Shown here: positions 29,932 through 52,741 of the stretch, one piece after another
How positions within the stretch are numbered: position 1 is the stretch's first letter
Layout: each line of letters starts with the position of its first letter
Source: Bacteroidaceae bacterium
GTDB lineage: Bacteria; Bacteroidota; Bacteroidia; Bacteroidales; Bacteroidaceae
NCBI GenBank assembly: GCA_017464345.1
Contig: JAFUAH010000017.1
Coordinates: forward strand, 1 to 64,000
Direction: 5' to 3'
DNA length: 64,000 nucleotides
Position numbers and translations under genes: made by a program
The notes under the pieces: model-generated
Seen by the model: only the letters and a program-made list of their open reading frames with translations
Database searches by the model: none
Told to the model about the DNA's origin: nothing

Positions 29932-30266
29932 AATGATATAGTCTGTTAAGCAATCAGACTATATCTTCAGGCTTGCTTACAGGTAACACCAAGAGACCTC
30001 AGGACACAAAAGAAGCGCGAGTCATGGCTCTTCTCTTGAATCTTGAGGTCCTCGGAATGTACCTGTAACGCTGAGAAATAAGTCATGCCCGCGCTATCGC
30101 ACGGGCATCGGCTGACTTACTCAAGCGTTACATCATTGAAATTTCCGAGGTTTCAAGATTCTCTGAATAAATAGCTGATGCTATCGTTTACCACTAAGAT
30201 TTCGGCAAGGCCCTCCACTGAGTACCATCAACGCCACGAGGGCGGCGAATTGTCCCTTGCCGACGA
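29932..30266 (-). ncRNA. Structured 5' leader of the dcm/nuclease/Z1 operon (leader copy 1)
   Basis: On the minus strand the transcript starts with a hairpin whose 8-bp outer stem is 30203-30210 with 30255-30262. Long stem A pairs 30038-30057 and 30064-30091 with 30102-30132 and 30143-30161, capped by CGCTATCGC. Stem B (29979-30066) pairs ACAGGTA/TACCTGT and GACCTC/GAGGTC and overlaps stem A, so the two are mutually exclusive. Last is the 11-bp hairpin beside the dcm ATG. Copy 2 at 36733-37044 has the same order of elements. No coding sequence is evident. Confidence 0.6.
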
Positions 30267-30322
30267 CAAAATTAAGAATAATTTTTTATAAAAGAAAGAG
30301 ATTGGGGACTTTTGTATGAAAG
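30191..30322 (-). promoter_or_regulatory. Conserved promoter-hairpin module, copy 1
   Basis: About 130 bp nearly identical to 36970-37100. It contains a minus-strand TAATTTTG -7 box (30267-30274) and the first leader hairpin with the 5S-rRNA-like string GATGGTACT. Differences between copies lie mainly in paired positions: the stem CGGCAAGG/CCTTGCCG here is CGGCAGGG/CCCTGCCG there. Confidence 0.7.
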
Positions 30323-30428
30323 ATCGTGGATGAAGGGAAACACCTAACCAGATACCTCAACAGGCGTGCATCCCCTTGTTTATGCGGGATGGAGGAATAG
30401 TTCATACAACTATACCCTACCTAAACGC

Positions 30429-30477
30429 ACCGCCCGGAAATGCGCACAAGTCATTTCCGGGCGGTGTTGTATTCTTA
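30429..30477. terminator. Hairpin terminator-like repeat, copy 2
   Basis: A perfect 14-bp stem (30429-30442 with 30452-30465) followed by GTTGTATTCTTA, as in copy 1 at 25143-25190. It sits at the 3' end of the second R-M operon and just upstream of the promoter module of the first. The 100 bp between 30322 and this hairpin show no gene. Confidence 0.6.
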
Positions 30478-30496
30478 TAACAGGTGAATACAAATC

Positions 30497-30697
30497 CTAA
30501 AGTGGATCGGCAGAACCGCCTCCATTTTCTGCATCCATGCAGAACGCATTATAGAACTTCGTGTATAGTTCATGGTCATTCTTCAGTTTTTCCTCCGTTT
30601 CAGATGTATCCTCTTCTGCATAAATCAGCAGCACTTCTCCTTTTTTCCAATCCCCGATGTAAAATACTTCATAGTTCCACGGCGGGGAGTTTTCTTG
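30497..30697 (-). pseudogene. 66-codon open frame without a start, possible gene remnant
   Basis: Directly downstream of the GIY-YIG/helicase gene is an open frame reading NYEVFYIGDWKKGEVLLIYA and continuing to a TAG at 30497. An in-frame TGA precedes its first codon and there is no plausible early start; the only ATG is 13 codons from the end. The composition looks protein-like. It may be the end of a disrupted small gene of the cassette. Function unknown. Confidence 0.3.
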
Positions 30698-30711
30698 TCA
30701 TTGCGCTGAAG

Positions 30712-33453
30712 TCATTGGCAAACCAGATACCCGCCTTCGAAGGCGTTGGGGAACAGGAACTTCGATTCCCTGTCCTCGAAGCGTACGACGATGTATTTGC
30801 CATCCAGCGACATCACCTTCCCATGGCCAAAACTCTTGTGCAGGACGCTGTCGCCAGCCCGCAGGTTCTCCCAGGGTGCAAAGTTCTCCGCGATTGGTTC
30901 CGCCTGTGCTGTCATGTCTTCTGCTTCTTCCGTTTCCAGCTCTGGGGCATCAGCCGTATCGATTACCGTATCCCAACCGCCGATGACGGTACCGGTGTGC
31001 GTGTTGATACCCGTGTACTCCAGCGACGCATCCTCGTAGCGCTTGAACTTGTAGACGGCATCGTTCATCAGGTCGCGGTTAAACACACCCAAGCCCACCA
31101 ACAGGTCGAAGTCCGCAAGCGTCAGCCCCGTAACCTTTCGGAACAATTCAGGTTCCAGTTGCCTGATGACGTCTATCAGGCTATACTCGCGGAAGTCCGT
31201 CAGGTACATAAAGACGGGGATGCGCGTCGCAAACTTGATGAGTTTCTCCTGTATCTCCTTGCGCTTGCTTTTGTATTCCTTCTCTTCCTCCGTCAGTTGT
31301 TTCTTTTCTTTCGGCGTCAGTCCCTCCCCCTTCTCTTTCTTGGTGTTCTTGACGTGCTCAGACTTGTTGATGATGGTCTCTATGTCGCTGTTCAGACTTC
31401 GGAAGCCCTCGATGTTCATCAGTGCCTTCATGGCCTCCGGGCTGTTCAGCAGGCGTTGTAGCGTGGCGTTGTCCACGTTCACCAGCACGGCACTCTCCCA
31501 TCGGCGGGCCAGCAGGGTTGCCGTCGTCCCGCTCATGGCCATATCCAGCACGCCGGCGGCATCTATTTCCTTCATCGACGAACCATCATAGGCCAGGATG
31601 GGCAGGAACTTGATGAACTCCGCCACCTTCTTCTCCGGATTGCTCTCCTCCACATTCAGTTGGCAACTGTATTCCTCCACCTGCCGCAGGGCGCGGTTCG
31701 GGGCGAAGTCGAAGACGTAGCACAGGGGCTTCAGTATCACCTCCTCGCCCTCCGCATTCTTCGTTGTCCACGGCGACTGCACGCGGAAGGCCGCCTGGAA
31801 GTAGGTCTCCGGCGAGGTTGTATTTCGCAGCATCAGAATGCCCGTCCAGGGCTTTACGGTCACGCCCGTGGAGAGTTTACCGCAGGACAGCGTGATGGTC
31901 TTCGTCTGCTGGGGATTGCCCATCGCGTTGTAGACGGGTTCGACGGCTTTGGCCCCCATCCCAGCCTCGTTGCCTGCCGCCACAATGACCTCATAATCGT
32001 CGAAAAAGCGGTTCGCCCGCTTGCACAGCAGTTTGGCCATCGCCCGACAGGCCGCCACGCTGGGCAGGAACCAGTAGGTGTGCTGCAGGTAACTCAGCAA
32101 TCGGCTATCCGAATATGGCATGGGCGGCTTCTCTTTTCCCTGCTTCAGTTCCGTGACGATGTTCTCCGCGTATGCGCCCCGAATCAAGTCCAACCATTTC
32201 TGCACATACTCTTCATGCAAGAAGTAATCGTCCTCGGCACGGAAGAACTCGTTAAGGTCGAACTCGTCGAACTCTCCCTGCGAAGCCACCTGGCTGATGC
32301 TCTCCGGCATCTGGTAGGTCAACATCACCATTTTGGGCAACTGAGCGTAGGGATTATTCTCTCCCTTCCAAGCCTCCTTAGCGGCCTGCTCGTCGGAATA
32401 CGTCCAGTTGTATATCTGTTCCTCGATGAACTCGCCTGTGGAAATGGCTCGGAACGGTGTGCCAGAAAGATAAAGGTAGGCGCCCGTGCGCAAGGGCATC
32501 AGTCCCTCGTCATACAGTTCGCGGGCTTCCATCTCCCGACTTGAACCAGCATCCTCACTCATCATCTCGCCCATCTCTTCTGCCCGCTTCAGGGCCGGGT
32601 CGCGCTTGTCGTAGAAGTTCTTGGCGTTTTTGCCCCAGGCTCCGTAGTGGTACTCGTCCAGTACGATGCAGTCCCAATCCACCGTCTGTATCCATTCGTT
32701 CGTGGCCTTGATGCCACCCACGGCATTCCTGCCCAGCACGTCTTGGAAGGAGGCGAAACACACAAAGGGCCGGTGCTCATTCACGCGGTTAAACTCGCGG
32801 TCTTCCCGCTTCTGGCAGAACTGCCAACCTGCGAAGTCCTTGTGCGTCGCCAGGTCTTCCTCCCAAGCCGTCTTCACAGCGGGCTTGAAAGTCAGCACCA
32901 GCACCCGTGTCCAGCCCATCTTCAGGGCCAACTGATAAGTAGTAAAAGTCTTGCCGAAGCGCATCTTGCAGTTCCACAGGAAGTGGGGCGTGAGGCCGCG
33001 ATTCGTGGGGTCTTTCCGGAAGGCCGTGAAGTAGGCCGCCGTCTTCTCCACCGCCTTCGCCTGCTCGGGCCGCATCCGGAAGTCGTAGATGCGCTCCGTC
33101 ATGCTGTCGCGCCTTTCCCGGGCGGCATGGATGGCACGTTCCACCTCCCGTACCTCGCATCGGAACCATTCGCCGAAGGGATTGGGAACTCTGGCCTTGC
33201 GCAGATAGTAGTGCACGCCGCCCAGCCCCTTGTCCATGAAGTACGTGCCGTCCGGGCGCATTGAACTGCGCCGCAGCACTATCTCCTTGTCCAGGTACAG
33301 TTCGTGGCCCTGCTCCTCTACGCGGATAACTCCGGGCCGGGAGGTATAGCCCACCTTCAGCAGCCCCCGGTGCGAGGGCACGCCGGGTAGGGTGTAGGCG
33401 TAGATGGTGGGCGTTTCGTCCACCCGATTTCGCAGTAAGTCTTGTGTTGCCAT
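30712..33453 (-). CDS. GIY-YIG/T5orf172-like domain fused to SF2 helicase (restriction subunit)
   Basis: A 913-residue protein. The N-terminus (TIYAYTLPGVPSHRGLLKVG and YTSR) looks like a GIY-YIG or T5orf172 nuclease-like domain. A type III-restriction-like helicase core follows: Walker A CKMRFGKTFTT (about residue 170), DEYH box in CIVLDEYHYGAWG, YLSGTPFRA, and late motif SPETYFQAAFRVQSPW. A charged stretch sits near residue 720. The C-terminus (GDSVLHKSFGHGKVMSLDGK) resembles a PcrA/UvrD tudor-like domain. It is last in the four-gene R-M operon and probably the DNA-translocating nuclease. Confidence 0.8.
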   Translation of the reverse strand: MATQDLLRNRVDETPTIYAYTLPGVPSHRGLLKVGYTSRPGVIRVEEQGHELYLDKEIVLRRSSMRPDGTYFMDKGLGGVHYYLRKARVPNPFGEWFRCEVREVERAIHAARERRDSMTERIYDFRMRPEQAKAVEKTAAYFTAFRKDPTNRGLTPHFLWNCKMRFGKTFTTYQLALKMGWTRVLVLTFKPAVKTAWEEDLATHKDFAGWQFCQKREDREFNRVNEHRPFVCFASFQDVLGRNAVGGIKATNEWIQTVDWDCIVLDEYHYGAWGKNAKNFYDKRDPALKRAEEMGEMMSEDAGSSREMEARELYDEGLMPLRTGAYLYLSGTPFRAISTGEFIEEQIYNWTYSDEQAAKEAWKGENNPYAQLPKMVMLTYQMPESISQVASQGEFDEFDLNEFFRAEDDYFLHEEYVQKWLDLIRGAYAENIVTELKQGKEKPPMPYSDSRLLSYLQHTYWFLPSVAACRAMAKLLCKRANRFFDDYEVIVAAGNEAGMGAKAVEPVYNAMGNPQQTKTITLSCGKLSTGVTVKPWTGILMLRNTTSPETYFQAAFRVQSPWTTKNAEGEEVILKPLCYVFDFAPNRALRQVEEYSCQLNVEESNPEKKVAEFIKFLPILAYDGSSMKEIDAAGVLDMAMSGTTATLLARRWESAVLVNVDNATLQRLLNSPEAMKALMNIEGFRSLNSDIETIINKSEHVKNTKKEKGEGLTPKEKKQLTEEEKEYKSKRKEIQEKLIKFATRIPVFMYLTDFREYSLIDVIRQLEPELFRKVTGLTLADFDLLVGLGVFNRDLMNDAVYKFKRYEDASLEYTGINTHTGTVIGGWDTVIDTADAPELETEEAEDMTAQAEPIAENFAPWENLRAGDSVLHKSFGHGKVMSLDGKYIVVRFEDRESKFLFPNAFEGGYLVCQ

Positions 33454-33507
33454 AACTAAACTTCTTTGTTATGGCACTCTTCGCTTTTGTGTAGGATTGA
33501 TTTCTTT

Positions 33508-33611
33508 CTAGCCAGGCTAGATCCTCTAGATTTTCTAGATTGGCTAGAAGGACTAGATTAACTAGAAGGGCTAGAAAGGCTGGATTGACTAGAAAAAACT
33601 AGACCGGCTAG
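33508..33611. repeat. CTAG array with 9-bp period
   Basis: CTAG starts at 33508, 33517, 33526, 33535, 33544, 33553, 33562 and 33571, then a CTGG variant at 33580, then CTAG at 33589, 33599 and 33608. All steps are 9 bp except one of 10. The four to five bases between cores vary. The array abuts the stop codon of the four-helix-bundle gene and ends 54 bp before the helicase start codon. Confidence 0.9.
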
Positions 33612-33612
33612 A

Positions 33613-34266
33613 TTACCCAGGCCTCTTCTCTCTGAGCATGGCCTCCAGTTCTGTTATCCGCCTGTTGGCTGCTTCCAGTTCTCGCTTCAGCCGTTCTATT
33701 TCTTCTCGCTGGTTAGTGCGATAGCCCAGTCGGGCTGCCGTCATTCGCTCTTTGATGCCACCCTCCTTCACAAAAGTTTCCTCTTGTTGTTTCTGATAGG
33801 TGGTCATCATCTTATCTACCATGTGGCAGAGCGTGAGGGCTATGTTTGCCATCTCTTCGTTTGTCCACTTTTCGAAATAGTTCTGGTAGTCCTCTATGCG
33901 GTTGTGCTTTCGGCAGAACTGTAGCATACCGTCGTATCGCTCGTGACCTGGCTTCCATCGCTGCAAATGGCGAGAGGTGATATAGTCCTCGTAGTCCTCT
34001 TTTAGTTCCTTGATGCTACTACGTGCCACGTTAAGGAGTTTCAGTTCCATCTCCATAGAAGTGACGCCGTCGGCAGAACCCTCCACTATGTTCTGTTTTC
34101 CAGAGCGGGCAGCCTGCACCATCTGGTCAATGGTGCGGTCACCTCTCGTCAGGAATCGTTTGGTGAAGACAAATGTCAACTGATAAAGAACGTTGCTCTT
34201 CTGATAGAAGTACAAATCCTCCCAATTGGCTTGTTTGCGAAGCACTGGTCTTATTTCGTTGTCCAT
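33613..34266 (-). CDS. Four-helix-bundle (S23/Avd-like) protein with extra C-terminal coiled coil
   Basis: A 217-residue protein. The core (QMVQAARSGKQNIVEGSADG through a long helical region) matches the four-helix-bundle family first seen in 23S rRNA intervening sequences and related to Avd. The C-terminal 50 residues (EEIERLKRELEAANRRITEL) form a leucine-zipper-like coiled coil, the suffix domain type. The ATG at 34266 is chosen because a consensus promoter (TTTG-N19-TAACTTTG, 34290-34320) lies upstream. Its place inside an R-M operon suggests a nucleic-acid-binding or scaffold role, which is inference. Confidence 0.75.
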   Translation of the reverse strand: MDNEIRPVLRKQANWEDLYFYQKSNVLYQLTFVFTKRFLTRGDRTIDQMVQAARSGKQNIVEGSADGVTSMEMELKLLNVARSSIKELKEDYEDYITSRHLQRWKPGHERYDGMLQFCRKHNRIEDYQNYFEKWTNEEMANIALTLCHMVDKMMTTYQKQQEETFVKEGGIKERMTAARLGYRTNQREEIERLKRELEAANRRITELEAMLREKRPG

Positions 34267-34270
34267 CTGT

Positions 34271-34320
34271 CCTAATTTGAAATTAGGTACAAAGTTACAC
34301 ATTTATTGACAACAAGCAAA
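34271..34320 (-). promoter_or_regulatory. Internal promoter and palindromic operator of the four-helix-bundle gene
   Basis: Minus-strand TTTG (34317-34320), 19 nt and TAACTTTG (34290-34297) fit the Bacteroidota consensus. CCTAATTTGAAATTAGG, a 17-nt perfect palindrome (34271-34287), lies between the -7 box and the ATG at 34266, where a repressor could bind. The gene can therefore be expressed apart from the methylases. Confidence 0.6.
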
Positions 34321-34364
34321 GAAAATCAATCCACAAAATATCAAAGAGCGCCTGATTATTTTCT

Positions 34365-35870
34365 TTATTCCATTGGTCTTATCATCGATTCGATAAATGC
34401 TATCTCTTCTTCCGTCAGCCCGTATTTCTCGTAAAGCATCTCGTCTGTCCAAGGATGAGAGAAGTCTTGGACAGGGACGAACTGATATGCTGTTTTAGTG
34501 ATATGATGAGAGAACATTAATTGGGATACTAAAAATCTAAAGAATAAGGTTTTCATATAGCCAACCATGTTCTTCGCTTCTTTTTCTGTATTAAAACTAT
34601 TAATTACAAGGTATGTTTCATTACATATTGTACCAGGAGGAAGAACATCAATTTTTGCAAATACCCGACGCTTGCCATCTTTTCCTGGATTCCCTGCATG
34701 GTCATAGCCAACATAAGAGGTTATCACTTTCCACTTGTCAATCATTTCTACGCCTACTACTATTTCGGAGCGATTATATGGCCCTTCACCATTTTGCCAC
34801 CTTAAAAGGATGTCTCCTGTAGGTTGAGGACGGACAAAGGTTCTAAGACCAAATGGCTTACTGCTTGATACTATATCAGCCATTAATGCCTCTTTCCTAG
34901 ACAATACCTTTCTAATAATATTCAAAGCCTCTTTACGCCTTATGAATGTCTCAAATTCGTTAAGTTTGCGCATTGTCTCAACTTTTTGCCCATTACAGAT
35001 ATTCACAACACGACAAATCCCCTTATTGTCCCTATCCCACAGGAAAAAGCATACACCACCCGCTATATCTACGCCAGGGAAACAATCATTCGCGTTCTCA
35101 TAATCAACAATTACACGAAAACGATTATCATTCAATGTGTCTTTTCGAAAGTTATCAAGACCTTTGCCTCCACCGAACCAACGAGATGGAATAATCATTG
35201 AAATATATCTTGCTTTTATTCGTTTTGCTTGCTCAACAAACATCTGATATAATGGGGATGCACTTGCTTGTGCACCTCCATCGCTCAATTGATATGGAGG
35301 GTTACCTATTATAACATCAAATTTCATATTCGGAAAGAATTGTTTGGGATTATCTGTGTGAATAAATTGATAGGCATATTGCTCTGCTTCAGAACCGCGG
35401 TCGTAGACGGATTGGCTGGCACCGCAGTAACGGCATTTACCATTGACCCACGTGTGGCGGATATTCCTATATAATATGTTGCCCGCCGGGGTGTCGAACT
35501 TCGAGACGCTGTACGGGCTGTTGGCCGCCTTGCTGCAATAGACGGAACGGCGGGCCAGCAGCGAGGTCAGTTCCGTGCAGGCTATGCCAAAGACTTGATG
35601 GTGCAGGATGTGGTCGATGCGCTGCTGGCGGTCGGGAATCTGGTCCTGCAAGCCGCGGTCGAGCCGCTTCACTATCTCGCGCAGGAAGACGCCGCTCTTG
35701 GTGAAGGGGTCGAGGAAGGTGGTCTTGGGACTTCGGAACAATGCCTGCGGCAACAGGTCGAGCATTCGGTTGGCCAGTTCGGGCGGAGTGAACACCTCGT
35801 CGTTGCTCAAGTTCGCAATGCAGTTGAGCACATCGGGATTGTAGTCATTTACCATTTTACGATTTATCAT
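34365..35870 (-). CDS. Eco57I-type adenine-specific DNA methylase
   Basis: A 501-residue N6-adenine methylase: VFTPPELANRMLDLLP, motif I-like LDPFTKSGVFLREI, a CRYCGAS zinc-finger-like pair, and catalytic motif IV VIIGNPPYQLS near residue 190. The C-terminal half should hold the target-recognition region. The N-terminal coding DNA (35400-35870) is GC-rich like its neighbours, whereas 34365-35400 is AT-rich, suggesting that the specificity half was exchanged. It overlaps the upstream subunit by 14 nt. Confidence 0.82.
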   Translation of the reverse strand: MINRKMVNDYNPDVLNCIANLSNDEVFTPPELANRMLDLLPQALFRSPKTTFLDPFTKSGVFLREIVKRLDRGLQDQIPDRQQRIDHILHHQVFGIACTELTSLLARRSVYCSKAANSPYSVSKFDTPAGNILYRNIRHTWVNGKCRYCGASQSVYDRGSEAEQYAYQFIHTDNPKQFFPNMKFDVIIGNPPYQLSDGGAQASASPLYQMFVEQAKRIKARYISMIIPSRWFGGGKGLDNFRKDTLNDNRFRVIVDYENANDCFPGVDIAGGVCFFLWDRDNKGICRVVNICNGQKVETMRKLNEFETFIRRKEALNIIRKVLSRKEALMADIVSSSKPFGLRTFVRPQPTGDILLRWQNGEGPYNRSEIVVGVEMIDKWKVITSYVGYDHAGNPGKDGKRRVFAKIDVLPPGTICNETYLVINSFNTEKEAKNMVGYMKTLFFRFLVSQLMFSHHITKTAYQFVPVQDFSHPWTDEMLYEKYGLTEEEIAFIESMIRPME

Positions 35871-36732
35871 TTAACAGGTCGATGAAACGTATTTCCGTTT
35901 TCTTTTCCCAGTCGAAGATGCGGCAGAAGCGGTTTTCTACAGGAGGAAGGAATAATGAGGGCTCTCTGTCCTCCAGTACCTCGTGGTCGGGCAGGCCGCC
36001 TGTCAGCCCATCCATTTGCCAGAGGTTCCAGGCGACAATGTCGGCAATCGCATGGATGCTTTTCGCAGGAGGCACGTCCGAGAACTTCGCTTCGTAGTAT
36101 TCCATGAAACTGAACAGCAGGTTTTGCCTTGCCAGGAGCAGGTTGTCGCCCTGCCATTCATAGCCGCAGGTGCACTGGTAGGCCACTTCGGCCCATCGGA
36201 GCCATTCATCGCCCGTCTGCGTGTTCTCGCCGATAAGGCGAAGTTTGCGGTCGAGCAGGCCAATGCGTTCTTCCAGGGGGATGGGTTCGCCCGTAGTGGT
36301 GTCGTAGCGACTGACCAAGTAGGGCGCCTCGCCGCAGGTTATCTCCAAGACGGTGGTGCGGACATAGTCCTGCCAATCCGGCCCATCCTCTGTGTGCTCT
36401 GTCTTCTCTGTGTGCTCTGTGTCGCATGAAAGCATAGCGTCTTGTACCAGACCGTTCTGTGCATTACAAATCCACGAAGGCGTGAACACCTCCGCCATAT
36501 CCTTCGAGCGGTCGGTCTGGTTCGCCTTCGATTTCAACACACGCGGTTGCACCACCATTCCCCGTTCGCCGTTGATCAGTTCCGGCTGTATCTCGGAATG
36601 GTAGCCATACGCGGGGCCGAGCGCCTCGTAATCGTGCGTCGCCCAGAAGATGTTTTTGCCTGTGGTATGGTCACGTAGCAGGGTGTCGAGCACCTGTGCC
36701 GACATGGCCAGCAGGTCGTCGTTGTTTGGCAT
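35857..36732 (-). CDS. R-M methylase-like subunit with degenerate SAM motif
   Basis: A 291-residue protein that keeps the EVFTPSWICNAQNGLVQD segment seen in N6-methylases but has VLEITCGEAPYLVSRYD where a SAM-binding DPACGTG-type motif is expected, and no NPPY. It may be a non-catalytic partner of the Eco57I-type methylase. Residues around 105 are DTEHTEKTEHTE, encoded by four 9-bp repeats at 36388-36423, a satellite inserted in frame. It is the first gene of the operon, directly after leader copy 2. Confidence 0.7.
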   Translation of the reverse strand: MPNNDDLLAMSAQVLDTLLRDHTTGKNIFWATHDYEALGPAYGYHSEIQPELINGERGMVVQPRVLKSKANQTDRSKDMAEVFTPSWICNAQNGLVQDAMLSCDTEHTEKTEHTEDGPDWQDYVRTTVLEITCGEAPYLVSRYDTTTGEPIPLEERIGLLDRKLRLIGENTQTGDEWLRWAEVAYQCTCGYEWQGDNLLLARQNLLFSFMEYYEAKFSDVPPAKSIHAIADIVAWNLWQMDGLTGGLPDHEVLEDREPSLFLPPVENRFCRIFDWEKKTEIRFIDLLNDKS

Positions 36733-37044
36733 ACTTCGCGCTTATAACTTTATGCACAAGCACTTATTCGATGTCTGATATTACACAACCATAAAGACAC
36801 GAAAAGCGCGGACGCTTATCCGTGCCAGTGGTTGTGAGAGATACCAGAACGAATGATAAGTGATGTCCACGCTATAAGCGCAGACACATTACACTTACTC
36901 ATATTCGTTCGCGTTAAAAACTCTCACATTTCTGGCGCGCTGAATAACTGCATTGTGCTGTTATTAATTCCACTAAGATTTCGGCAGGGCCCTCCGCTGA
37001 GTACCATCGGCGCCACGAGGGCGACGAATTGTCCCTGCCGACGA
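36733..37044 (-). ncRNA. Structured 5' leader of the GIY-YIG/methylase operon (leader copy 2)
   Basis: Same order as copy 1: outer hairpin stem CGGCAGGG (36982-36989) with 37033-37040; long stem A, 36833-36867 with 36883-36928, capped by CGCTATAAGCG; stem B, CACAACCA (36784-36791) with TGGTTGTG (36829-36836), plus CACG/CGTG and AAGCG/CGCTT. Stems A and B share TGTG (36833-36836), so their closing ends compete. Sequence outside the first hairpin differs from copy 1 while the pairing scheme is kept. It ends at the start codon of the methylase-like subunit. Confidence 0.6.
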
Positions 37045-37100
37045 CAAAATTAAGAATAATTTTTTATAAAAGAAAGAGATTGGGGACTTTTGTACGAAAG
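36970..37100 (-). promoter_or_regulatory. Conserved promoter-hairpin module, copy 2
   Basis: Nearly identical to 30191-30322. The minus-strand -7 box TAATTTTG is at 37045-37052, with an A/T-rich upstream region. The rest of the gap up to the HMA gene holds only the 21-bp repeat at 37205-37267. Confidence 0.7.
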
Positions 37101-37204
37101 TGACGTCCCCCTGCACATGCTTAATGTCATCGTTTGCCTATGCATCACGGCTTACTTGCCCATGCAAAGGTTATAGCGTCGGGATGCATAGTCCATTCAT
37201 CAGT

Positions 37205-37287
37205 TTGGAACGCACATACCAAACTTATGAACGTGCGTACCAAACCTTGGAACGCACGTTCATAACCTTGGAAAGACTTATGCAATG
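37205..37287. repeat. 21-bp tandem repeat, about 3.3 units
   Basis: Units start at 37205 (TTGGAACGCACATACC), 37226 and 37247, with a partial unit from 37268. Read on the plus strand they encode a LERTYQT/YERAYQT/LERTFIT heptad, but no supported gene contains it. Confidence 0.6.
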
Positions 37288-45427: not shown

Positions 45428-48400
45428 ATGAAACGCATATTAGGACTCGATTTAGGGGTAAGTAGTATTGGCTGGGCTTTGGTAAACGAAGCCGAGAGCC
45501 AAGAAGAGAAGTCTTCTATTGTCAAACTTGGTGTTCGTGTCAATCCGCTGACGGCTGACGAACAAAGAAATTTCGAAAAAGGGAAATCCATAACCACCAA
45601 CGCCGACCGCACCCTGAAAAGGGGCATGCGCCGAAGCCTGCAACGCTACAAACTCCGTCGTAACGAACTCATCCGATTACTGAAGGAGCATCATTTCATC
45701 ACTGACGAAACTCTCCTGTATGAGAACGGTAATCGAACCACCTTTGAGACCTATCGTCTACGCGCCAAGGCTGCTACGGAACAAATCTCGCTGGAAGAAC
45801 TAGCTCGCGTACTCCTTATGATAAACAAGAAACGTGGCTACAAGAGTAACCGTAAGGCCAAAGGCAATGACGAAGGGCAATTGGTCGATGGTATGGAGGT
45901 GGCCAAAATCCTCTATGACGAAGGACTTACACCTGGCGAATACTCCCTTTCGCTCATTGACCAAGGAAAGAAATATCTGCCCGATTACTATCAATCTGAC
46001 TTACAGGCAGAACTCAAAAGAATCTGGGATAAGCAGAAAACGCTGTATCCCGAAAAACTTACCGACGATTTTTGGCAGGTACTGCAAGGCAAGAGCAAGA
46101 CCCAGACCAATAAAATGTTTATTGCTCGCTACCAAGTATTTTCGCCAACCCTGAAACGGGACGAAGCCCGTCATCAGCTCTTGCAGTGGCGTGTAAACGG
46201 ATTAAGCAAACAACTAACCATAGAAGAGGTATCTGCCGTAGTGGCTGAACTAAACGGGCAGATAAATGGGACAAGTGGCTATCTGGGCAAAATCAGTGAC
46301 CGTAGCAAGGAACTCTATTTCCGCAAACAAACCGTCGGGCAATATCTAATGGCCCTACTTGATGCAAATCCCAATGCCAGCCTCCGCAACACGGTGTTCT
46401 ATCGTCAGGACTATCTCGACGAGTTCGAAATGATATGGCAGACACAGGCTCGATTCCATCCTGAACTAACAAACGGGCTCAAACACGACATTGGAAATGT
46501 GACCATCTTCTACCAGCGCCCCCTCAGAAGCCAAAAAGGCCTTGTCTCCATCTGCGAACTCGAACAGCAGCAACTCGAGACCATGGTCGACGGGAAGAAA
46601 AAAGTCATCACAATTGGCAGTAAGGTATGCCCCAAGTCCTCCCCACTCTTCCAAGACTTCCGTATGTGGCAGCGCCTCAACGACCTCCGCATCCTCAGCG
46701 ACGAACTTTTTGGCAATCGCAGTTTAGACTTGACAGAGAAACAGACTCTGGCACACGAACTCAGCATCCATGCCAAACTCACCAAGCAACAAGCCTTGAA
46801 ATTCTTGTTCAAAAAGGCAAAAGGCATAGACCTGAACTTCAAGGAACTGGATGGCGACACCACACAGGCGGCGCTATTCGAAGCCTACAAGAAGATTGTA
46901 GACATGTCGGGACATGGGGAATACGACTTCTCCAAGATGCCCACTGACGAGGTGCTGGATATCGTAGAAAATGTCTTCTCCGCACTGGGATTTAGCACTG
47001 CGCCATTACGTTTCGATGCCACGCTACAAGGGAAAGATTTGGAACGCCAGCCCTGCTACCAACTCTGGCATCTGCTATATTCCTATGAAGGTGACAAGTC
47101 CAAAACCGGTGACGAAGCACTTATCCGCAAAATACGCAACATCTTCCACTTCGACAACGACGATTACGCAAAAATCATTGCCCAAGTATCCTTCAAGCCC
47201 GATTACGGCAGTCTCAGCGCCAAGGCTATACGTAAGTTGCTACCCTACATGTATGAAGGATATGACTACTACGAGGCTTGTGAGATGGCGGGGTATCGTC
47301 ATTCCGCACGTTCACTTACCAAGGAAGAACTGGAACACAAAGAACTAAAGTCACAATTAGACCTCTTGCCTCGAAACAGCCTCCGCAATCCTGTTGTAGA
47401 GAAAATTCTCAATCAGATGGTTAATGTCGTCAATGCCGTAGTTGAGACTTATGGCCCCATTGACGAGATACGCATAGAATTGGCTCGCGACCTGAAAAAG
47501 AGTGCCAAAGAGCGTGAGGACGACACCACCGCCATCAACAAGGCAACAAAAGAACACGAGGAGTATCGCAAGACGCTACAAAATGCACCTTTTAACATTC
47601 TCCATCCCAGCCGAAACGACATTATCCGCTACAAACTCTATTTGGAACTCAAGGAGAACGGATTCCACACACTCTATTCCAATACCTACATCCCACAAGA
47701 GAGTCTGTTCACCAATGACTTCGATATTGAACACATCATCCCACAATCCAGTGCCTTCGACGATTCGTTCTCAAACAAAACGTTGGAACTGAAAACGGTA
47801 AACCTAAAGAAAGGTAATGCCACAGCATTTGATTTCATTAGGAGTGAATATGGCGAAGCGGAACTGGAGGAATACAAAAAGCGTATTGACGACCTGCTAC
47901 GGCGGAAAGTCATCAGCCCGAAGAAACACGAGAATCTGCTCAAAACTGCGGCTGACATCAAGGGTGATTTCATTGCACGAGACTTACGCGACACTCAGTA
48001 CATCTCGCGCAAGGCACGCGAGATATTGGAGCAAATGGTTCGCGTAGTAACACCGACGACTGGTAAAATCACCGACCAGTTACGTGAAGATTGGGGGCTG
48101 GTGGACGTGATGCAGCAATTGAGCTGGGAGAAATACGATGCCGCTGGACAAACCGTATCATGGCAGAACCGTGAGGGCAAGACCATCTACCGAATCAAGG
48201 ACTGGACAAAGCGCAACGACCATCGCCACCACGCGATGGACGCCCTTACCATAGCCTTTACTCGTCACAGCATCGTGCAATATTACAATAACATGAACGC
48301 ACGTTCGGACAAGACAAGCGACATCTACGGCATCGAATGTAAGGACATGGAACGCCACAACGGTCACTTGCGTTTCAAACTCCCCATTGAGCACATGCGC

Positions 48401-49552
48401 GAGGAGGCAAAGCACCATCTTGAGACCATTCTGGTTTCCATCAAGTCGAAGACAAAAGTAGCCACACAGAATGTCAATCGCAGTAAGGCACCACGGGCAG
48501 AAGGTGGCCAAGTCCGTAAAGTGCAACTTACGCCACGCGCACAGTTACATAAGGAGACCATCTATGGCCGACACAGCCAATACCGTGTATCAATGGAAAA
48601 GGTAGGGGCGGCATTCGACGAAGCAAAGATTTCCACTGTTGCCAACAAAGAAATTCGCGAAGCCTTAGGCCGTCGTCTGGCCGCATACGGAGGCGATGCC
48701 AAGAAAGCATTCACAGGAAAGAACTCCCTCGAAAAGAATCCCATCTGGCTCAACGCCGAACATAGCCGGGCTGTACCCCTGAGAGTGAAATGTGTGGTAT
48801 TGGAAGATATCTTCACCATCCGCAAGCCCGTCAGCAAAGACCTTGCACTCGACAATGTCGTCGACCCTGCCATCAGAGCCATTCTGCAACGTCGGCTCGA
48901 CGAATGCGGAGGCGACGCAGGAAAGGCATTCTCCAACCTCGAGGAGAATCCCATTTGGCTTAATAAAGAACGAGGCATTGCCATCAAACGCGTAGCCATA
49001 AATACCGGCCTTAGTGCACCTGAGCCCATCCACGAAAAGCGCGACCGCACTGGACAGCACATAAAGGACAACGACGGGAAAGGACAACCCACCGACTATG
49101 TACAGACAGGCAACAACCATCATGTCGCCATCTTCGAGGATGCCGACGGCAAGTTACAGGAACACATCGTATCTTACTACGAGGCCATGACGCGTCTTAC
49201 GCAAGGCCTTCCTGTAATAGACTACAACTACAATGCCGAGTTGGGATGGAAGTTCTTGTTCACCATGAAGCAGAACGAATACTTTGTATTCCCAGGCGAG
49301 AGTTTCAATCCGGTAGAAGTAGATTTAAAGAATCCTGAAAACTATTCAAGGATTAGTCCTCATCTTTTCCGCGTGCAGAAATTGGCCTCAAAAGATTACT
49401 TCTTCAGACATCATCTGGAAACTACGGTAGAAGACAGAAAAGAATTGCACACAAAGACATGGTTTAGAGTCACAAATATAGAGAAACTTCGCCATATCGT
49501 AAAAGTCCGCATCAATCACATCAGCCAAATTGTTGCTATAGGAGAATATTAA
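45428..49552 (+). CDS. cas9: CRISPR-associated endonuclease Cas9, type II-C
   Basis: A 1374-residue Cas9. RuvC-I is GLDLGVSSIGWAL (Asp8), followed by an Arg-rich bridge helix (LKRGMRRSLQRYKLRRN). RuvC-II is IRIELARDLKKS, HNH is DFDIEHIIPQSSAFDDSF (His769, with Asn792 downstream) and RuvC-III is HRHHAMDA (Asp938). All catalytic residues are present. The C-terminal part contains two related modules (GGDAKKAF...NPIWLN near 1085-1110 and GGDAGKAF...NPIWLN near 1160-1180). There is no csn2 or cas4, so type II-C. Confidence 0.97.
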   Translation: MKRILGLDLGVSSIGWALVNEAESQEEKSSIVKLGVRVNPLTADEQRNFEKGKSITTNADRTLKRGMRRSLQRYKLRRNELIRLLKEHHFITDETLLYENGNRTTFETYRLRAKAATEQISLEELARVLLMINKKRGYKSNRKAKGNDEGQLVDGMEVAKILYDEGLTPGEYSLSLIDQGKKYLPDYYQSDLQAELKRIWDKQKTLYPEKLTDDFWQVLQGKSKTQTNKMFIARYQVFSPTLKRDEARHQLLQWRVNGLSKQLTIEEVSAVVAELNGQINGTSGYLGKISDRSKELYFRKQTVGQYLMALLDANPNASLRNTVFYRQDYLDEFEMIWQTQARFHPELTNGLKHDIGNVTIFYQRPLRSQKGLVSICELEQQQLETMVDGKKKVITIGSKVCPKSSPLFQDFRMWQRLNDLRILSDELFGNRSLDLTEKQTLAHELSIHAKLTKQQALKFLFKKAKGIDLNFKELDGDTTQAALFEAYKKIVDMSGHGEYDFSKMPTDEVLDIVENVFSALGFSTAPLRFDATLQGKDLERQPCYQLWHLLYSYEGDKSKTGDEALIRKIRNIFHFDNDDYAKIIAQVSFKPDYGSLSAKAIRKLLPYMYEGYDYYEACEMAGYRHSARSLTKEELEHKELKSQLDLLPRNSLRNPVVEKILNQMVNVVNAVVETYGPIDEIRIELARDLKKSAKEREDDTTAINKATKEHEEYRKTLQNAPFNILHPSRNDIIRYKLYLELKENGFHTLYSNTYIPQESLFTNDFDIEHIIPQSSAFDDSFSNKTLELKTVNLKKGNATAFDFIRSEYGEAELEEYKKRIDDLLRRKVISPKKHENLLKTAADIKGDFIARDLRDTQYISRKAREILEQMVRVVTPTTGKITDQLREDWGLVDVMQQLSWEKYDAAGQTVSWQNREGKTIYRIKDWTKRNDHRHHAMDALTIAFTRHSIVQYYNNMNARSDKTSDIYGIECKDMERHNGHLRFKLPIEHMREEAKHHLETILVSIKSKTKVATQNVNRSKAPRAEGGQVRKVQLTPRAQLHKETIYGRHSQYRVSMEKVGAAFDEAKISTVANKEIREALGRRLAAYGGDAKKAFTGKNSLEKNPIWLNAEHSRAVPLRVKCVVLEDIFTIRKPVSKDLALDNVVDPAIRAILQRRLDECGGDAGKAFSNLEENPIWLNKERGIAIKRVAINTGLSAPEPIHEKRDRTGQHIKDNDGKGQPTDYVQTGNNHHVAIFEDADGKLQEHIVSYYEAMTRLTQGLPVIDYNYNAELGWKFLFTMKQNEYFVFPGESFNPVEVDLKNPENYSRISPHLFRVQKLASKDYFFRHHLETTVEDRKELHTKTWFRVTNIEKLRHIVKVRINHISQIVAIGEY

Positions 49553-49553
49553 G

Positions 49554-50489
49554 ATGATAAAGAAGACACTCTACTTCGGCAACCCCATTTACCTAAGTCT
49601 GCGCAACGGGCAGTTGGTACTCCGCTTCCCCGACATCGAGAAGAACGAAAACCTTTCCGATACATTCAAGAAGGAAACAGAACGTACCATTCCCATAGAA
49701 GACATCGGGGTTGTGGTGCTCGACAACAAACGCATCACGCTCACCACAGGGGCAATGGAGGCCCTGCTGGACAATAATTGCGCACTCATCACCTGCGACG
49801 ACAAGAGTATGCCCGTCGGCCTCATGCTACCCCTCTGCGGTAATACGTTGCAAAACGAGCGATTCCGTTCTCAGATAGACGCCTCTGTCCCCCTGAGAAA
49901 GCAACTATGGCAGCAGACCGTCCGGCAGAAAATCCTCAATCAGGCCGCCGTGCTCGAATATAGCACGGGGAAAGAGGCAAAGAACATGCTGGCGTGGGCA
50001 AACGACATAAAAAGCGGGGACAGCGAAAACATGGAGGCACGGGCGGCCGCCTTCTACTGGAAGAACGTCTTCCCCACCCTGCCTGGCTTCGTCCGTGGAC
50101 GTGAAGGCGAGCCGCCCAACAATCTCCTAAACTACGGGTATGCCATCCTGCGGGCCTGTGTGGCTCGTGGCTTGGTCGGGAGCGGACTACTGCCGACACT
50201 GGGCATCCACCACCACAACCGCTATAATGCCTACTGCCTGGCCGACGATATTATGGAGCCCTATCGCCCATTTGTCGACCAACTGGTAGTAGACATCATC
50301 CGGCAGAACTACGACTATTCCGAACTGACACGCGAACTGAAAGCACGGCTTCTCACCATTCCCTCGCTCGATGTTAAGGTAGACGGTAAGCGCAGCCCAC
50401 TCATGATAGCCGTGGGACAGACCACTGCCAGCCTGGCCAAGTGTTTCAGTGGCGAGGTGCGGAAGATTTCCTACCCCGACCTCGGATGA
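49554..50489 (+). CDS. cas1: CRISPR-associated endonuclease Cas1
   Basis: A 311-residue Cas1 of the type II lineage. The metal ligands are visible: Glu in NMEARAAAFYW (about 161), His in LGIHHHNRYN (about 219-221) and the acidic LADDIMEPYRP. With Cas2 it forms the spacer integrase. It starts 1 nt after the cas9 stop and ends 3 nt before cas2. Confidence 0.96.
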   Translation: MIKKTLYFGNPIYLSLRNGQLVLRFPDIEKNENLSDTFKKETERTIPIEDIGVVVLDNKRITLTTGAMEALLDNNCALITCDDKSMPVGLMLPLCGNTLQNERFRSQIDASVPLRKQLWQQTVRQKILNQAAVLEYSTGKEAKNMLAWANDIKSGDSENMEARAAAFYWKNVFPTLPGFVRGREGEPPNNLLNYGYAILRACVARGLVGSGLLPTLGIHHHNRYNAYCLADDIMEPYRPFVDQLVVDIIRQNYDYSELTRELKARLLTIPSLDVKVDGKRSPLMIAVGQTTASLAKCFSGEVRKISYPDLG

Positions 50490-50492
50490 CCT

Positions 50493-50837
50493 ATGACAAC
50501 CAGACAAGTACGTATCAGCCAATATCGCGTCATGTGGATTCTTGTTTTCTTCGACCTCCCTACTGAAACCAAGAAAGACCGCAAGCGGTATGCTGAATTT
50601 CGGAAACGGCTGCAAGGCGACGGCTTCGTCATGTTTCAGTTTTCCATCTACATCCGCCACTGTGCCAGTGCCGAGAACATGGATGTCCACCTAAAACGCG
50701 TCAAGTCTTTTATCCCCGAGTTCGGCAAGGTGGGACTACTGACCATCACCGACAAGCAATTTGGCAACATCCAACTTTTCCATGGGAAGAAGGAGGAGCC
50801 CCCAAAGGCTCCAGGCATACAACTCGAACTTTTTTAG
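50493..50837 (+). CDS. cas2: CRISPR-associated protein Cas2
   Basis: A 114-residue Cas2 with the ferredoxin-like core MWILVFFDLPTETKKDR (the conserved Asp about residue 21) and YIRHCASAENMDVHLKRV. It is the structural partner of Cas1 in spacer integration and the last cas gene before the array. Confidence 0.95.
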   Translation: MTTRQVRISQYRVMWILVFFDLPTETKKDRKRYAEFRKRLQGDGFVMFQFSIYIRHCASAENMDVHLKRVKSFIPEFGKVGLLTITDKQFGNIQLFHGKKEEPPKAPGIQLELF

Positions 50838-50967
50838 TAAGAGACATAAAAACATCAGGATACGAATAGTCCCAGCCTTTCGGTTGGGACTATTCGTGCA
50901 GCGACTTCTTTTTTTATTCCTAATCATCGGCCTAAACCTCTGATTCTCTTTGCGTTCCTCAATATGA
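50838..50967. terminator. cas operon terminator and array leader
   Basis: A 15-bp near-perfect hairpin, CGAATAGTCCCAGCC with GGTTGGGACTATTCG (50863-50896), followed after 11 nt by a T-run (50907-50915). It should end cas transcription and may also stop the array transcript from the other side. The remaining 50 bp up to the first repeat are the likely integration leader. Confidence 0.6.
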
Positions 50968-52704
50968 GTTGTTTATGCCACTGCAAAGATACTAATTTTT
51001 CAGCAAATCACAACTGTTGCAGCGTCGATGACCTCATACACACTGTTGTTTATGCCACTGCAAAGATACTAATTTTTCAGCAAATCACAACCTACACGCG
51101 CACGTGTGATTACCTATAAAGTTGTTTATGCCACTGCAAAGATACTAATTTTTCAGCAAATCACAACTGCATACGCTAATACCGTAGTACCTACTGGGTT
51201 GTTTATGCCACTGCAAAGATACTAATTTTTCAGCAAATCACAACCGAAGCCGTTGAGCGTAAGTCAATTAGGAAGTTGTTTATGCCACTGCAAAGATACT
51301 AATTTTTCAGCAAATCACAACTTGCCAGCAACTGGCTGCTCACCTCGGCCAGTTGTTTATGCCACTGCAAAGATACTAATTTTTCAGCAAATCACAACTG
51401 CCTGCCTGCTGCCTACCTCTCCCCCCTGTTGTTTATGCCACTGCAAAGATACTAATTTTTCAGCAAATCACAACTCGCGCTGAAAAATGGAAAAAACAGC
51501 AACGGTTGTTTATGCCACTGCAAAGATACTAATTTTTCAGCAAATCACAACTGAAGGTTATTAATTTCTTCGATGTAGTCCGTTGTTTATGCCACTGCAA
51601 AGATACTAATTTTTCAGCAAATCACAACGTGCGCGTGAAACGGTGTACACCTTCTTTGGTTGTTTATGCCACTGCAAAGATACTAATTTTTCAGCAAATC
51701 ACAACTGGACGAGAGAGGAGAAAATAAATGCATTTGTTGTTTATGCCACTGCAAAGATACTAATTTTTCAGCAAATCACAACCAGTTACGATGGCGTTCT
51801 TTCACAAAATTGGTTGTTTATGCCACTGCAAAGATACTAATTTTTCAGCAAATCACAACGAATACCTCGGCGGTAAGGATTTCTATATTGTTGTTTATGC
51901 CACTGCAAAGATACTAATTTTTCAGCAAATCACAACTTTCACTTGCGACGCCAATGTATTCACTCGGTTGTTTATGCCACTGCAAAGATACTAATTTTTC
52001 AGCAAATCACAACACAAATGCGGCAGCGGGCGGCGTTGAAAAAGTTGTTTATGCCACTGCAAAGATACTAATTTTTCAGCAAATCACAACTGCCGGCAAC
52101 TGGCGTAATGTTGTCGGACTGTTGTTTATGCCACTGCAAAGATACTAATTTTTCAGCAAATCACAACTGCATTGATGTAGGCCACCACATCCTTGTAGTT
52201 GTTTATGCCACTGCAAAGATACTAATTTTTCAGCAAATCACAACACTACGGCACCGACCAAACACTCCTTCTGGTTGTTTATGCCACTGCAAAGATACTA
52301 ATTTTTCAGCAAATCACAACATCCAGGGCTTTCGCCATGGCATCGAATGAGTTGTTTATGCCACTGCAAAGATACTAATTTTTCAGCAAATCACAACAAC
52401 GACACAGACGCCGCCCAGCGGGCCGACGTTGTTTATGCCACTGCAAAGATACTAATTTTTCAGCAAATCACAACACTCTCAACTGTGCGCCGTACTCCTT
52501 CAGGTTGTTTATGCCACTGCAAAGATACTAATTTTTCAGCAAATCACAACTAACGATGTGTACGGAACATACAACAACGAGTTGTTTATGCCACTGCAAA
52601 GATACTAATTTTTCAGCAAATCACAACGTTCGTTTATCGCTTTTGTTGGATGCGTCTGTTGTTTATGCCACTGCAAAGATACTAATTTTTCAGCAAATCA
52701 CAAT
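50968..52704 (-). CRISPR. Type II-C CRISPR array, 23 repeats and 22 spacers
   Basis: The 47-nt repeat begins GTTGTTTATGCCACTGCAAA on the plus strand; the first 22 copies are identical by eye and the last (52658-52704) ends in T instead of C. Spacers are 30 nt, with four of 29 nt (51092, 51399, 52245, 52475). The reverse complement, GTTGTGATTTGC..., matches the orientation of known Bacteroides II-C repeats and pairs with the tracrRNA. It contains TATCTTTG, a -7 box, so I infer minus-strand transcription from within the repeats. No two spacers are the same by eye; targets unknown. Confidence 0.97.
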
Positions 52705-52741
52705 TTGCTTGCGAATGAAGTGTAGATGAAAGACGAAAGGG

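What the first reader, a model, noticed from the sequence alone, without database searches (positions are those of the whole stretch)
29932..37100. Two unrelated R-M operons share a promoter-hairpin module and a long structured leader
Seen: about 130 bp at 30191-30322 and 36970-37100 are nearly identical and contain a minus-strand -7 box and a first hairpin. Downstream of it, both leaders (over 300 nt each) have a long stem A with a CGCTAT..CGC apex and a stem B that competes with stem A, although sequence there is hardly conserved. Changes in the first hairpin keep pairing (CGGCAAGG/CCTTGCCG versus CGGCAGGG/CCCTGCCG). Inference: an RNA-based control element, perhaps a sensor or attenuator, used by different defence cargoes. 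I know of no described class with this layout.
Basis: partly seen in the sequence, partly recalled or inferred. Interest (0 to 1): 0.82.

Follow-up and report, generated by a model that had tools for sequence, protein, structure and literature searches.

The report
Shared two-state RNA leader on restriction-modification operons
The DNA in front of two unrelated restriction-modification operons encodes copies of a roughly 300-nucleotide RNA that can fold in two mutually exclusive ways, one of them ending like a transcription stop signal, and the same RNA sits in front of many defence and surface-protein genes in other Bacteroidota, probably as an on/off switch.

Summary
The two minus-strand leaders (about 29932-30275 and 36733-37053) belong to a structured-RNA family with no Rfam 15 match in the searches run. 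A covariance model of stem A finds it in 94 of 139 genus genomes, 138 of 393 order genomes and 23 of 296 phylum genomes; 12 rich genomes hold 8-24 copies each. Stem A has strong covariation: 95.7% of cells paired against 72.2% shuffled, 34 of 40 pairs with double changes. A second, exclusive fold is also supported: segments 1:2 and 3:4 fit their own partner better than permuted ones, and a GGY/RCC pair that is unpaired in stem A matches in 147 of 148 leaders. The 3:4 hairpin is followed by a U-run like an intrinsic terminator. Best reading: a cis-acting transcription attenuator with unknown trigger. In the genus, 60 of 69 leaders examined precede R-M or related DNA-defence genes; outside it, 42 of 60 precede other genes, so it is not defence-only. 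Expression and termination are untested.

The parts
29932..30275 (-). [not shown]
   Evidence: fold z -7.1; domains; R2 core match 30038-30170, 159.7 bits (it is one of the four sequences R2 was built from)
36733..37053 (-). Leader 2: from the -7 box to the start codon of the second R-M operon (35857-36732, 34365-35870, 33613-34302, 30712-33453)
   Evidence: fold z -6.1; domains; R2 core match 36822-36947, E 1.9e-11, not used to build R2
30267..30274 (-). -7 promoter box TAATTTTG, leader 1
   Evidence: TAnnTTTG occurs within 200 nt upstream of the core in 68 of 85 non-redundant leaders; consensus recalled
37045..37052 (-). -7 promoter box TAATTTTG, leader 2
   Evidence: as above
30203..30262 (-). 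P1, first hairpin, leader 1; inner AGYG-loop hairpin at 30213-30222; optional genus-level add-on
36982..37040 (-). P1, first hairpin, leader 2; inner AGYG-loop hairpin at 36992-37001
30163..30177 (-). Segment 1, leader 1 (3' strand of small hairpin P2 plus UUAUUCAG)
   Evidence: 1:2 own -12.5 against -8.2 kcal/mol permuted; place
30143..30161 (-). Strand a of P3, leader 1: outer 30153-30161, inner 30143-30150 (loop of H1 in the alternative fold)
   Evidence: a:b covariation; place
30099..30131 (-). Segment 2, leader 1 (5' strands of P4 and P5)
30065..30094 (-). Segment 3, leader 1 (3' strands of P5 and P4)
30038..30064 (-). GGY motif (30058-30064) and strand b of P3 (inner 30050-30057, outer 30038-30046), with RCC between inner and outer, leader 1
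   Evidence: GGY/RCC match in 147 of 148 leaders; place
30005..30035 (-). Segment 4, leader 1: X (30015-30035) and the interrupted U-run (30005-30014); 3' half of the terminator-like hairpin H2
29989..30004 (-).
   Evidence: b:c own -26.2 against -17.5 permuted in genus leaders; place
29935..29965 (-). Hairpin directly upstream of the start codon, leader 1
   Evidence: not tested for conservation
36878..36954 (-). Segment 1 (36940-36954), strand a (36932-36939 and 36921-36928) and segment 2 (36878-36910), leader 2
36821..36872 (-). Segment 3 (36847-36872), GGY (36841-36846) and strand b (36833-36840 and 36821-36828), leader 2
36784..36820 (-). Segment 4: X (36806-36820), U-run (36798-36805) and strand c (36784-36797), leader 2

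Best explanation
A cis-acting leader RNA that works as a transcription attenuator built from mutually exclusive hairpins. Shown by comparative sequence analysis: the gene-strand RNA can fold either as one long stem A (segment 2 with 3, clamped by a:b) or as two hairpins, H1 (1:2) and H2 (3:4); H2 has a G+C-rich base followed directly by a U-run. Inferred: H2 is an intrinsic terminator (H1+H2 = OFF) and stem A is the antiterminator (ON). Also inferred: the complementary, copy-specific inner a and b strands fall in the loops of H1 and H2, so the loops could kiss and seed the exchange to stem A. The trigger is unknown; the 5' part (linker, P2 and, in this genus, P1) is the likeliest place for a protein, a ligand or a polymerase pause to act. 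In R-M leaders of this genus an extra arm c can also capture b.
For: Stem A covariation: 95.7% of cells paired against 72.2% shuffled, 34 of 40 pairs with double changes, score 0.673 against 0.216 (0 of 500), slid controls 0.067-0.126. Own against permuted duplex energies in 85 non-redundant of 149 leaders: 1:2 -12.5 against -8.2, 2:3 -15.9 against -7.9, 3b:4 -21.5 against -16.5, each below the lowest of 1000 permutations; controls 1:3 (-4.1, -4.2) and 2:4 (-7.8, -7.8) show nothing. GGY/RCC, unpaired in stem A and paired in H2: U-A 101, C-G 45, U-G 1, C-A 1 of 148. At least 6 T in 8 nt after X in 69 of 85 against 7 of 84 at a control position. The 3' half alone folds with at least 5 of 8 P5-3':X pairs in 82 of 85. 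Leader ends 60-130 nt before an ATG ORF on its strand in 98 of 127.
Against: No RNA or termination data. In the genus group the U-run is interrupted (for example UUCUUUUGUG), and the simple terminator scan did not pick X plus U-run in leader 1 (its loop limit of 8 nt excludes H2). H2 has a long, only partly paired loop. Stem A is the more stable fold in 80 of 85, so OFF needs kinetics or a factor. The own partner is the single best in only 9 of 85 (1:2) and 6 of 85 (3b:4), and the P4-only part of 3:4 is weak (-7.6 against -6.5; in the genus set -8.1 against -7.5, not beyond the permutations). The GAAA:UUUC pairing of H1 is only slightly above permutation (4.39 against 4.05 pairs, maximum 4.21). 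P2 is not clearly supported. Related sequences share ancestry, so permutation results are not probabilities.
Confidence: 0.68

Rival explanations
1. A translation-level or mRNA-stability switch: the two folds exist, but the output is access to the start codon or decay, and the U-run is not a terminator.
For: A hairpin abuts or overlaps the start codon in several leaders (leader 1 at 29935-29965; L037 and L039 by eye). Arm c lies between the U-run and the start codon, and b:c is strong in the genus set.
Against: The U-run sits directly after X in most leaders (69 of 85), also outside the genus where b:c is weaker (-17.1 against -13.2).
Confidence: 0.15
2. A metabolite riboswitch, for example for SAM, the co-substrate of the methylases.
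For: Conserved internal loops in stem A; many cargoes are SAM-dependent methylases.
Against: No Rfam riboswitch match. Many cargoes are not methylases (42 of 60 outside the genus are not R-M-type). The GGY and RCC loop bases are accounted for by pairing in the other fold.
Confidence: 0.06
3. A DNA-level element: the end or folded recombination site of a mobile cassette that carries accessory genes.
For: Multi-copy, accessory cargo; unrelated genes of one genome share only the leader (roughly -60 to +224 around the core in G519); leaders 1 and 2 share a 95% identical 5' module before unrelated operons.
Against: G-U cells 160 against A-C cells 37 point to RNA on one strand. Fixed placement and orientation before genes. 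No boundary shared by the ten own-genome copies; only local repeats shared by pairs or triples. No match in plasmid or phage records for the two leaders searched.
Confidence: 0.05
4. A trans-acting small RNA that happens to be encoded before these genes.
For: Its own promoter box and a terminator-like end would give a free RNA of roughly 200-280 nt.
Against: Placement before a same-strand gene (98 of 127 within 60-130 nt); the copy-specific helices pair within the same molecule, which does not suggest a common target.
Confidence: 0.04

Closest known systems
trp-type transcription attenuators with segments 1-4 (recalled)
   Same: Chain of segments in which 2:3 excludes 1:2 and 3:4, and 3:4 is followed by a U-run.
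   Different: No conserved leader peptide: 9 of 68 leaders with a -7 box have an ATG ORF of 8 or more codons reaching segment 1. Long-range a:b clamp. Unrelated, non-biosynthetic cargo.
Kissing-hairpin to extended-duplex switches such as the HIV-1 dimer initiation site, and pT181-type antisense attenuators (recalled)
   Same: Two hairpins with complementary loops whose stems can also pair with each other.
   Different: Here both hairpins would be in one bacterial leader and one ends in a terminator-like U-run; kissing itself is untested.
radC RNA motif, RF01754 (Rfam number and Proteobacteria seen in passages of PMC2864571; its cargo of DNA-acting genes is recalled)
   Same: A candidate 5' leader RNA linked to DNA-modifying or anti-restriction genes.
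   Different: Proteobacteria; the window has no Rfam match.
Bacteroidota motifs of the 2010 survey (Bacteroidales-1, Bacteroides-1, Flavo-1, Bacteroid-trp; table passages of PMC2864571)
   Same: Structured RNAs of Bacteroidota found by comparative genomics.
   Different: No Rfam family reached its threshold in the window, and none of these was among the ten matches at E up to 10 in five loci.
C-protein control of type II R-M systems (recalled)
   Same: Regulates R-M expression.
   Different: Protein repressor/activator and operator; here a leader RNA shared by many R-M types. The window's operons were not searched for a C gene.

Membership tests
Transcription attenuator (intrinsic-terminator type) | Mutually exclusive helices in a 5' leader | tested here: met
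   2:3 against 1:2 and 3:4, plus the GGY/RCC match
Transcription attenuator (intrinsic-terminator type) | G+C-rich hairpin followed directly by a U-run | tested here: met
   82 of 85 3' halves with P5-3':X pairs; 69 of 85 with at least 6 T in 8 nt; the U-run is interrupted in the genus group
Transcription attenuator (intrinsic-terminator type) | Regulated premature termination | not testable with these tools
   needs RNA 3'-end data or in vitro transcription
trp-type ribosome-mediated attenuator | Conserved leader peptide over segment 1 | tested here: not met
   9 of 68 leaders with an ATG ORF of 8 or more codons reaching segment 1; only ATG starts were counted
Known riboswitch or other Rfam family | Covariance-model match at the curated threshold | tested here: not met
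   0 matches in the whole window; five further loci at E up to 10 gave 10 matches, all below gathering score
Kissing-loop / extended-duplex switch | Two hairpins with complementary loops | tested here: inconclusive
   inner a:b strands covary and fall in the loops of H1 and H2, but the same covariation is explained by stem A alone
Mobile cassette or recombination site | Conserved boundaries on both sides of the cargo | tested here: inconclusive
   own-genome copies share no common flank, only repeats between pairs or triples; no empty sites examined

The most novel reading that the evidence does not exclude
A previously undescribed class of RNA switch, widespread in Bacteroidota and present in Chlorobiota-labelled MAGs, in which two homologous hairpins of one leader recognise each other through a private 8-nt kissing-loop code and exchange strands between terminator and antiterminator. 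Each of the up to 24 copies of a genome would carry its own code so that copies do not cross-talk, and the class would form a regulon of horizontally acquired genes (R-M systems, a DarT-domain protein, surface proteins).
Probability: 0.38. Interest if true: 0.88.

Novelty: new variant of a known kind. Interest (0 to 1): 0.78.

Why it matters
If the switch is functional, many R-M systems and surface proteins of Bacteroidota share one RNA-level on/off control that annotation misses. That would make it directly testable how cells survive the arrival of a new R-M operon and how defence genes are kept quiet or switched on. It also supplies a covariance model that labels the upstream region of otherwise unannotated accessory genes.

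Tried and rejected
Plain BLAST with the 141-base module: 13 of 399 family-level genomes matched, the window's own included; of the other 12 only G338 showed recognisable copies, the rest were short promoter or chance matches. Exact patterns in viral contigs: 0 and 0. Leader 2 against plasmid and phage records: no match; a leader of another genus (L230): no match. R1, a model of the first hairpin, found only 5 of 139 genomes because that hairpin is an add-on; the core model R2 found 94 of 139. The type III leader L029, found with R1, was not matched by R2 at E 1e-6; I placed its core by eye, and it is counted among the 69.

Considered and rejected or ranked low: leader-peptide attenuation; known riboswitch families; folded DNA recombination site; R-M-only function. 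A Planctomycetes pattern hit (L283) was a false match: R3 found nothing there, while the other 33 of 34 pattern loci carry the element, one (L290) cut by its contig end.

Controls: no genome outside Bacteroidota was searched with R3 (an attempt failed). Internal controls: all 20 R3 matches in 60 methylase loci lie upstream of the methylase on its strand; opposite-strand palindrome matches score 21.6-33.5 bits against 49.5 or more for complete sense matches.

Literature: searches (listings and abstract starts only) showed nothing recognisable as this family. PMC2864571 and PMC2965389 were searched for terms only. The 2017 survey of 224 candidate RNAs is not held. So absence from print is not established.

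Rows and choices: 17 weak opposite-strand rows of alignment A8 were dropped before and all later counts made from it; still includes them. A7 and A8 are fitted to the model's structure, which leans towards stem A. Downstream genes came from a mechanical longest-ATG-ORF script and were annotated by cluster representative, not one by one. The automatic choice of X is visibly off by a few bases in part of the leaders.
Full report

Family. A model of P1 alone found 13 places in 5 of 139 genus genomes. Reading those loci showed the same downstream layout before C5, type I, type III, type IIG-like and EcoRI-type methylase genes, while two places had P1 without the rest. I aligned the stem A core of four leaders with a structure given by hand. 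The resulting model R2 matched 94 of 139 genus genomes at E up to 0.01, often in 2-6 places. A retrained model R3 (67 sequences) matched 138 of 393 genomes of the order and 23 of 296 of the phylum, the latter all in the window's class. In those two searches only about 8-11 places per genome were scored, so their copy numbers are lower bounds; 12 rich genomes scored more fully hold 8-24 copies each. A pattern scan of a named collection gave 34 loci; R3 confirmed 33, one cut at a contig end, among them four named isolates and Chlorobiota-labelled MAGs. E-values come from a shortened calibration and are rough.

Stem A. On 67 aligned leaders (65 distinct) 95.7% of cells form standard pairs, 34 of 40 pairs have a change on both sides, and the covariation score is 0.673 against 0.216 shuffled; slid controls give 0.067-0.126. 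A broader 102-row alignment, including 17 weak opposite-strand rows, gives 95.0% and 0.788 against 0.218. These alignments were fitted to the model's structure. A looser test is duplex energy against permuted partners, with the strands taken at fixed offsets from the match ends: a:b -24.4 and -22.4 kcal/mol own against -10.2 and -9.1 permuted in the genus set and the other set, own best in 31 of 32 and 49 of 53. The RNA strand is the gene's strand: 160 G-U against 37 A-C cells.

Second fold. Just after stem A lies X, which resembles the 5' strand of P5 and is followed by a U-run (a U-rich candidate in 148 of 149 leaders; Watson-Crick pairs of X with its own P5 3' strand 5.2 of 8 against 4.6 permuted, maximum 4.8). 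In 85 non-redundant of 149 leaders, X with the P5/P4 3' strand (3b:4) pairs at -21.5 own against -16.5 permuted and segment 1 with segment 2 at -12.5 against -8.2; 1:3 and 2:4, the pairings not expected, show nothing, nor does 1:4 beyond the permutations. Weaker points: the P4 part of 3:4 taken alone is marginal and not beyond permutation in the genus set; the own partner is the single best in only 9 (1:2) and 6 (3b:4) of 85. The cleanest test is GGY/RCC: these bases lie in internal loops of stem A but pair in the 3' hairpin, and they are U-A in 101, C-G in 45, U-G in 1 and C-A in 1 of 148 leaders (53, 30, 1 and 0 of 84 non-redundant). The 3' half alone folds with at least 5 of 8 P5-3':X pairs in 82 of 85. 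At least 6 T in 8 nt occur there in 69 of 85 against 7 of 84 at a control position. The GAAA:UUUC pairing that closes the loop of H1 is only slightly above permutation. Related sequences share history, so none of these counts is a probability.

Mechanism. I read this as an attenuator: stem A keeps segment 3 busy (ON); H1 plus H2 ends transcription (OFF). Stem A is the more stable in 80 of 85, so OFF must be reached kinetically or with a factor. The inner a and b strands fall in the loops of H1 and H2, are complementary and differ from copy to copy within a genome; a kissing step is plausible and untested. P2 (0:1) is not clearly supported and no leader peptide is conserved (9 of 68).

Cargo. 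The 69 genus leaders examined are the two of the window, seven first found with R1, and 60 taken in rank order from the R2 list (one contig-end hit, G472, left out); high scorers are over-represented. In 58 the first ORF found (the next one detected for L093 and L095) is a DNA methylase, a restriction gene or a defence-type helicase or nuclease, judged by cluster representative (L135 rests on a match below Pfam's cut-off). Two more (L083, L085) have a small ORF followed by a C5 methylase seen. The other 9 precede LRR, secreted or uncharacterised proteins. Outside the genus I fetched 60 high-scoring loci: 15 have an R-M-type gene first, one a DarT-domain protein, 42 other genes, many with lipoprotein or secretion signals by eye, and 2 show no ORF. 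In the window's own genome ten sense copies were seen over three searches: the two leaders, an EcoRI-type methylase at C30:2259, and seven before secreted, membrane or uncharacterised proteins judged by eye. From the gene side, the leader precedes 15 of the 30 best EcoRI_methylase loci and 4 of the 30 best PF00145 loci of the genus, so many R-M genes lack it.

Verdict. The kind (attenuator-like leader) is known; its design, spread and cargo look new. Function is inferred.

Noticed in passing
45428-52715: CRISPR-Cas locus: a 1374-aa protein with RuvC_III and HNH_4 domains (Cas9-like), Cas1 and Cas2, then an array with 77-base spacing that reads as a 47-base repeat plus 30-base spacers. With the two R-M operons this is a defence-rich region.
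   Followed up: partly
33613-34302: A 229-aa protein resembling 23S rRNA intervening-sequence proteins (below Pfam's cut-off) sits inside the second R-M operon.
   Followed up: no
37194-37272: Palindromic repeat upstream of leader 2 (GGAACGCAC.. units) with a similar stretch upstream of the EcoRI-type leader copy in L037.
   Followed up: no
L246 (G000:C30:8500-26475) and L037: Four copies of the leader lie within about 19 kb of one contig of the window's genome, three of them before uncharacterised proteins.
   Followed up: partly
L032, L035: P1 hairpin without the rest of the leader, in L035 before a flavodoxin-like ORF by eye: the first hairpin can travel or persist alone.
   Followed up: no
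L205, L206, L207, L252, L253: BspA-type LRR or similar secreted protein genes in two related genomes (G773, G581), several with the leader in front; LRR_5 domains confirmed for L205.
   Followed up: partly
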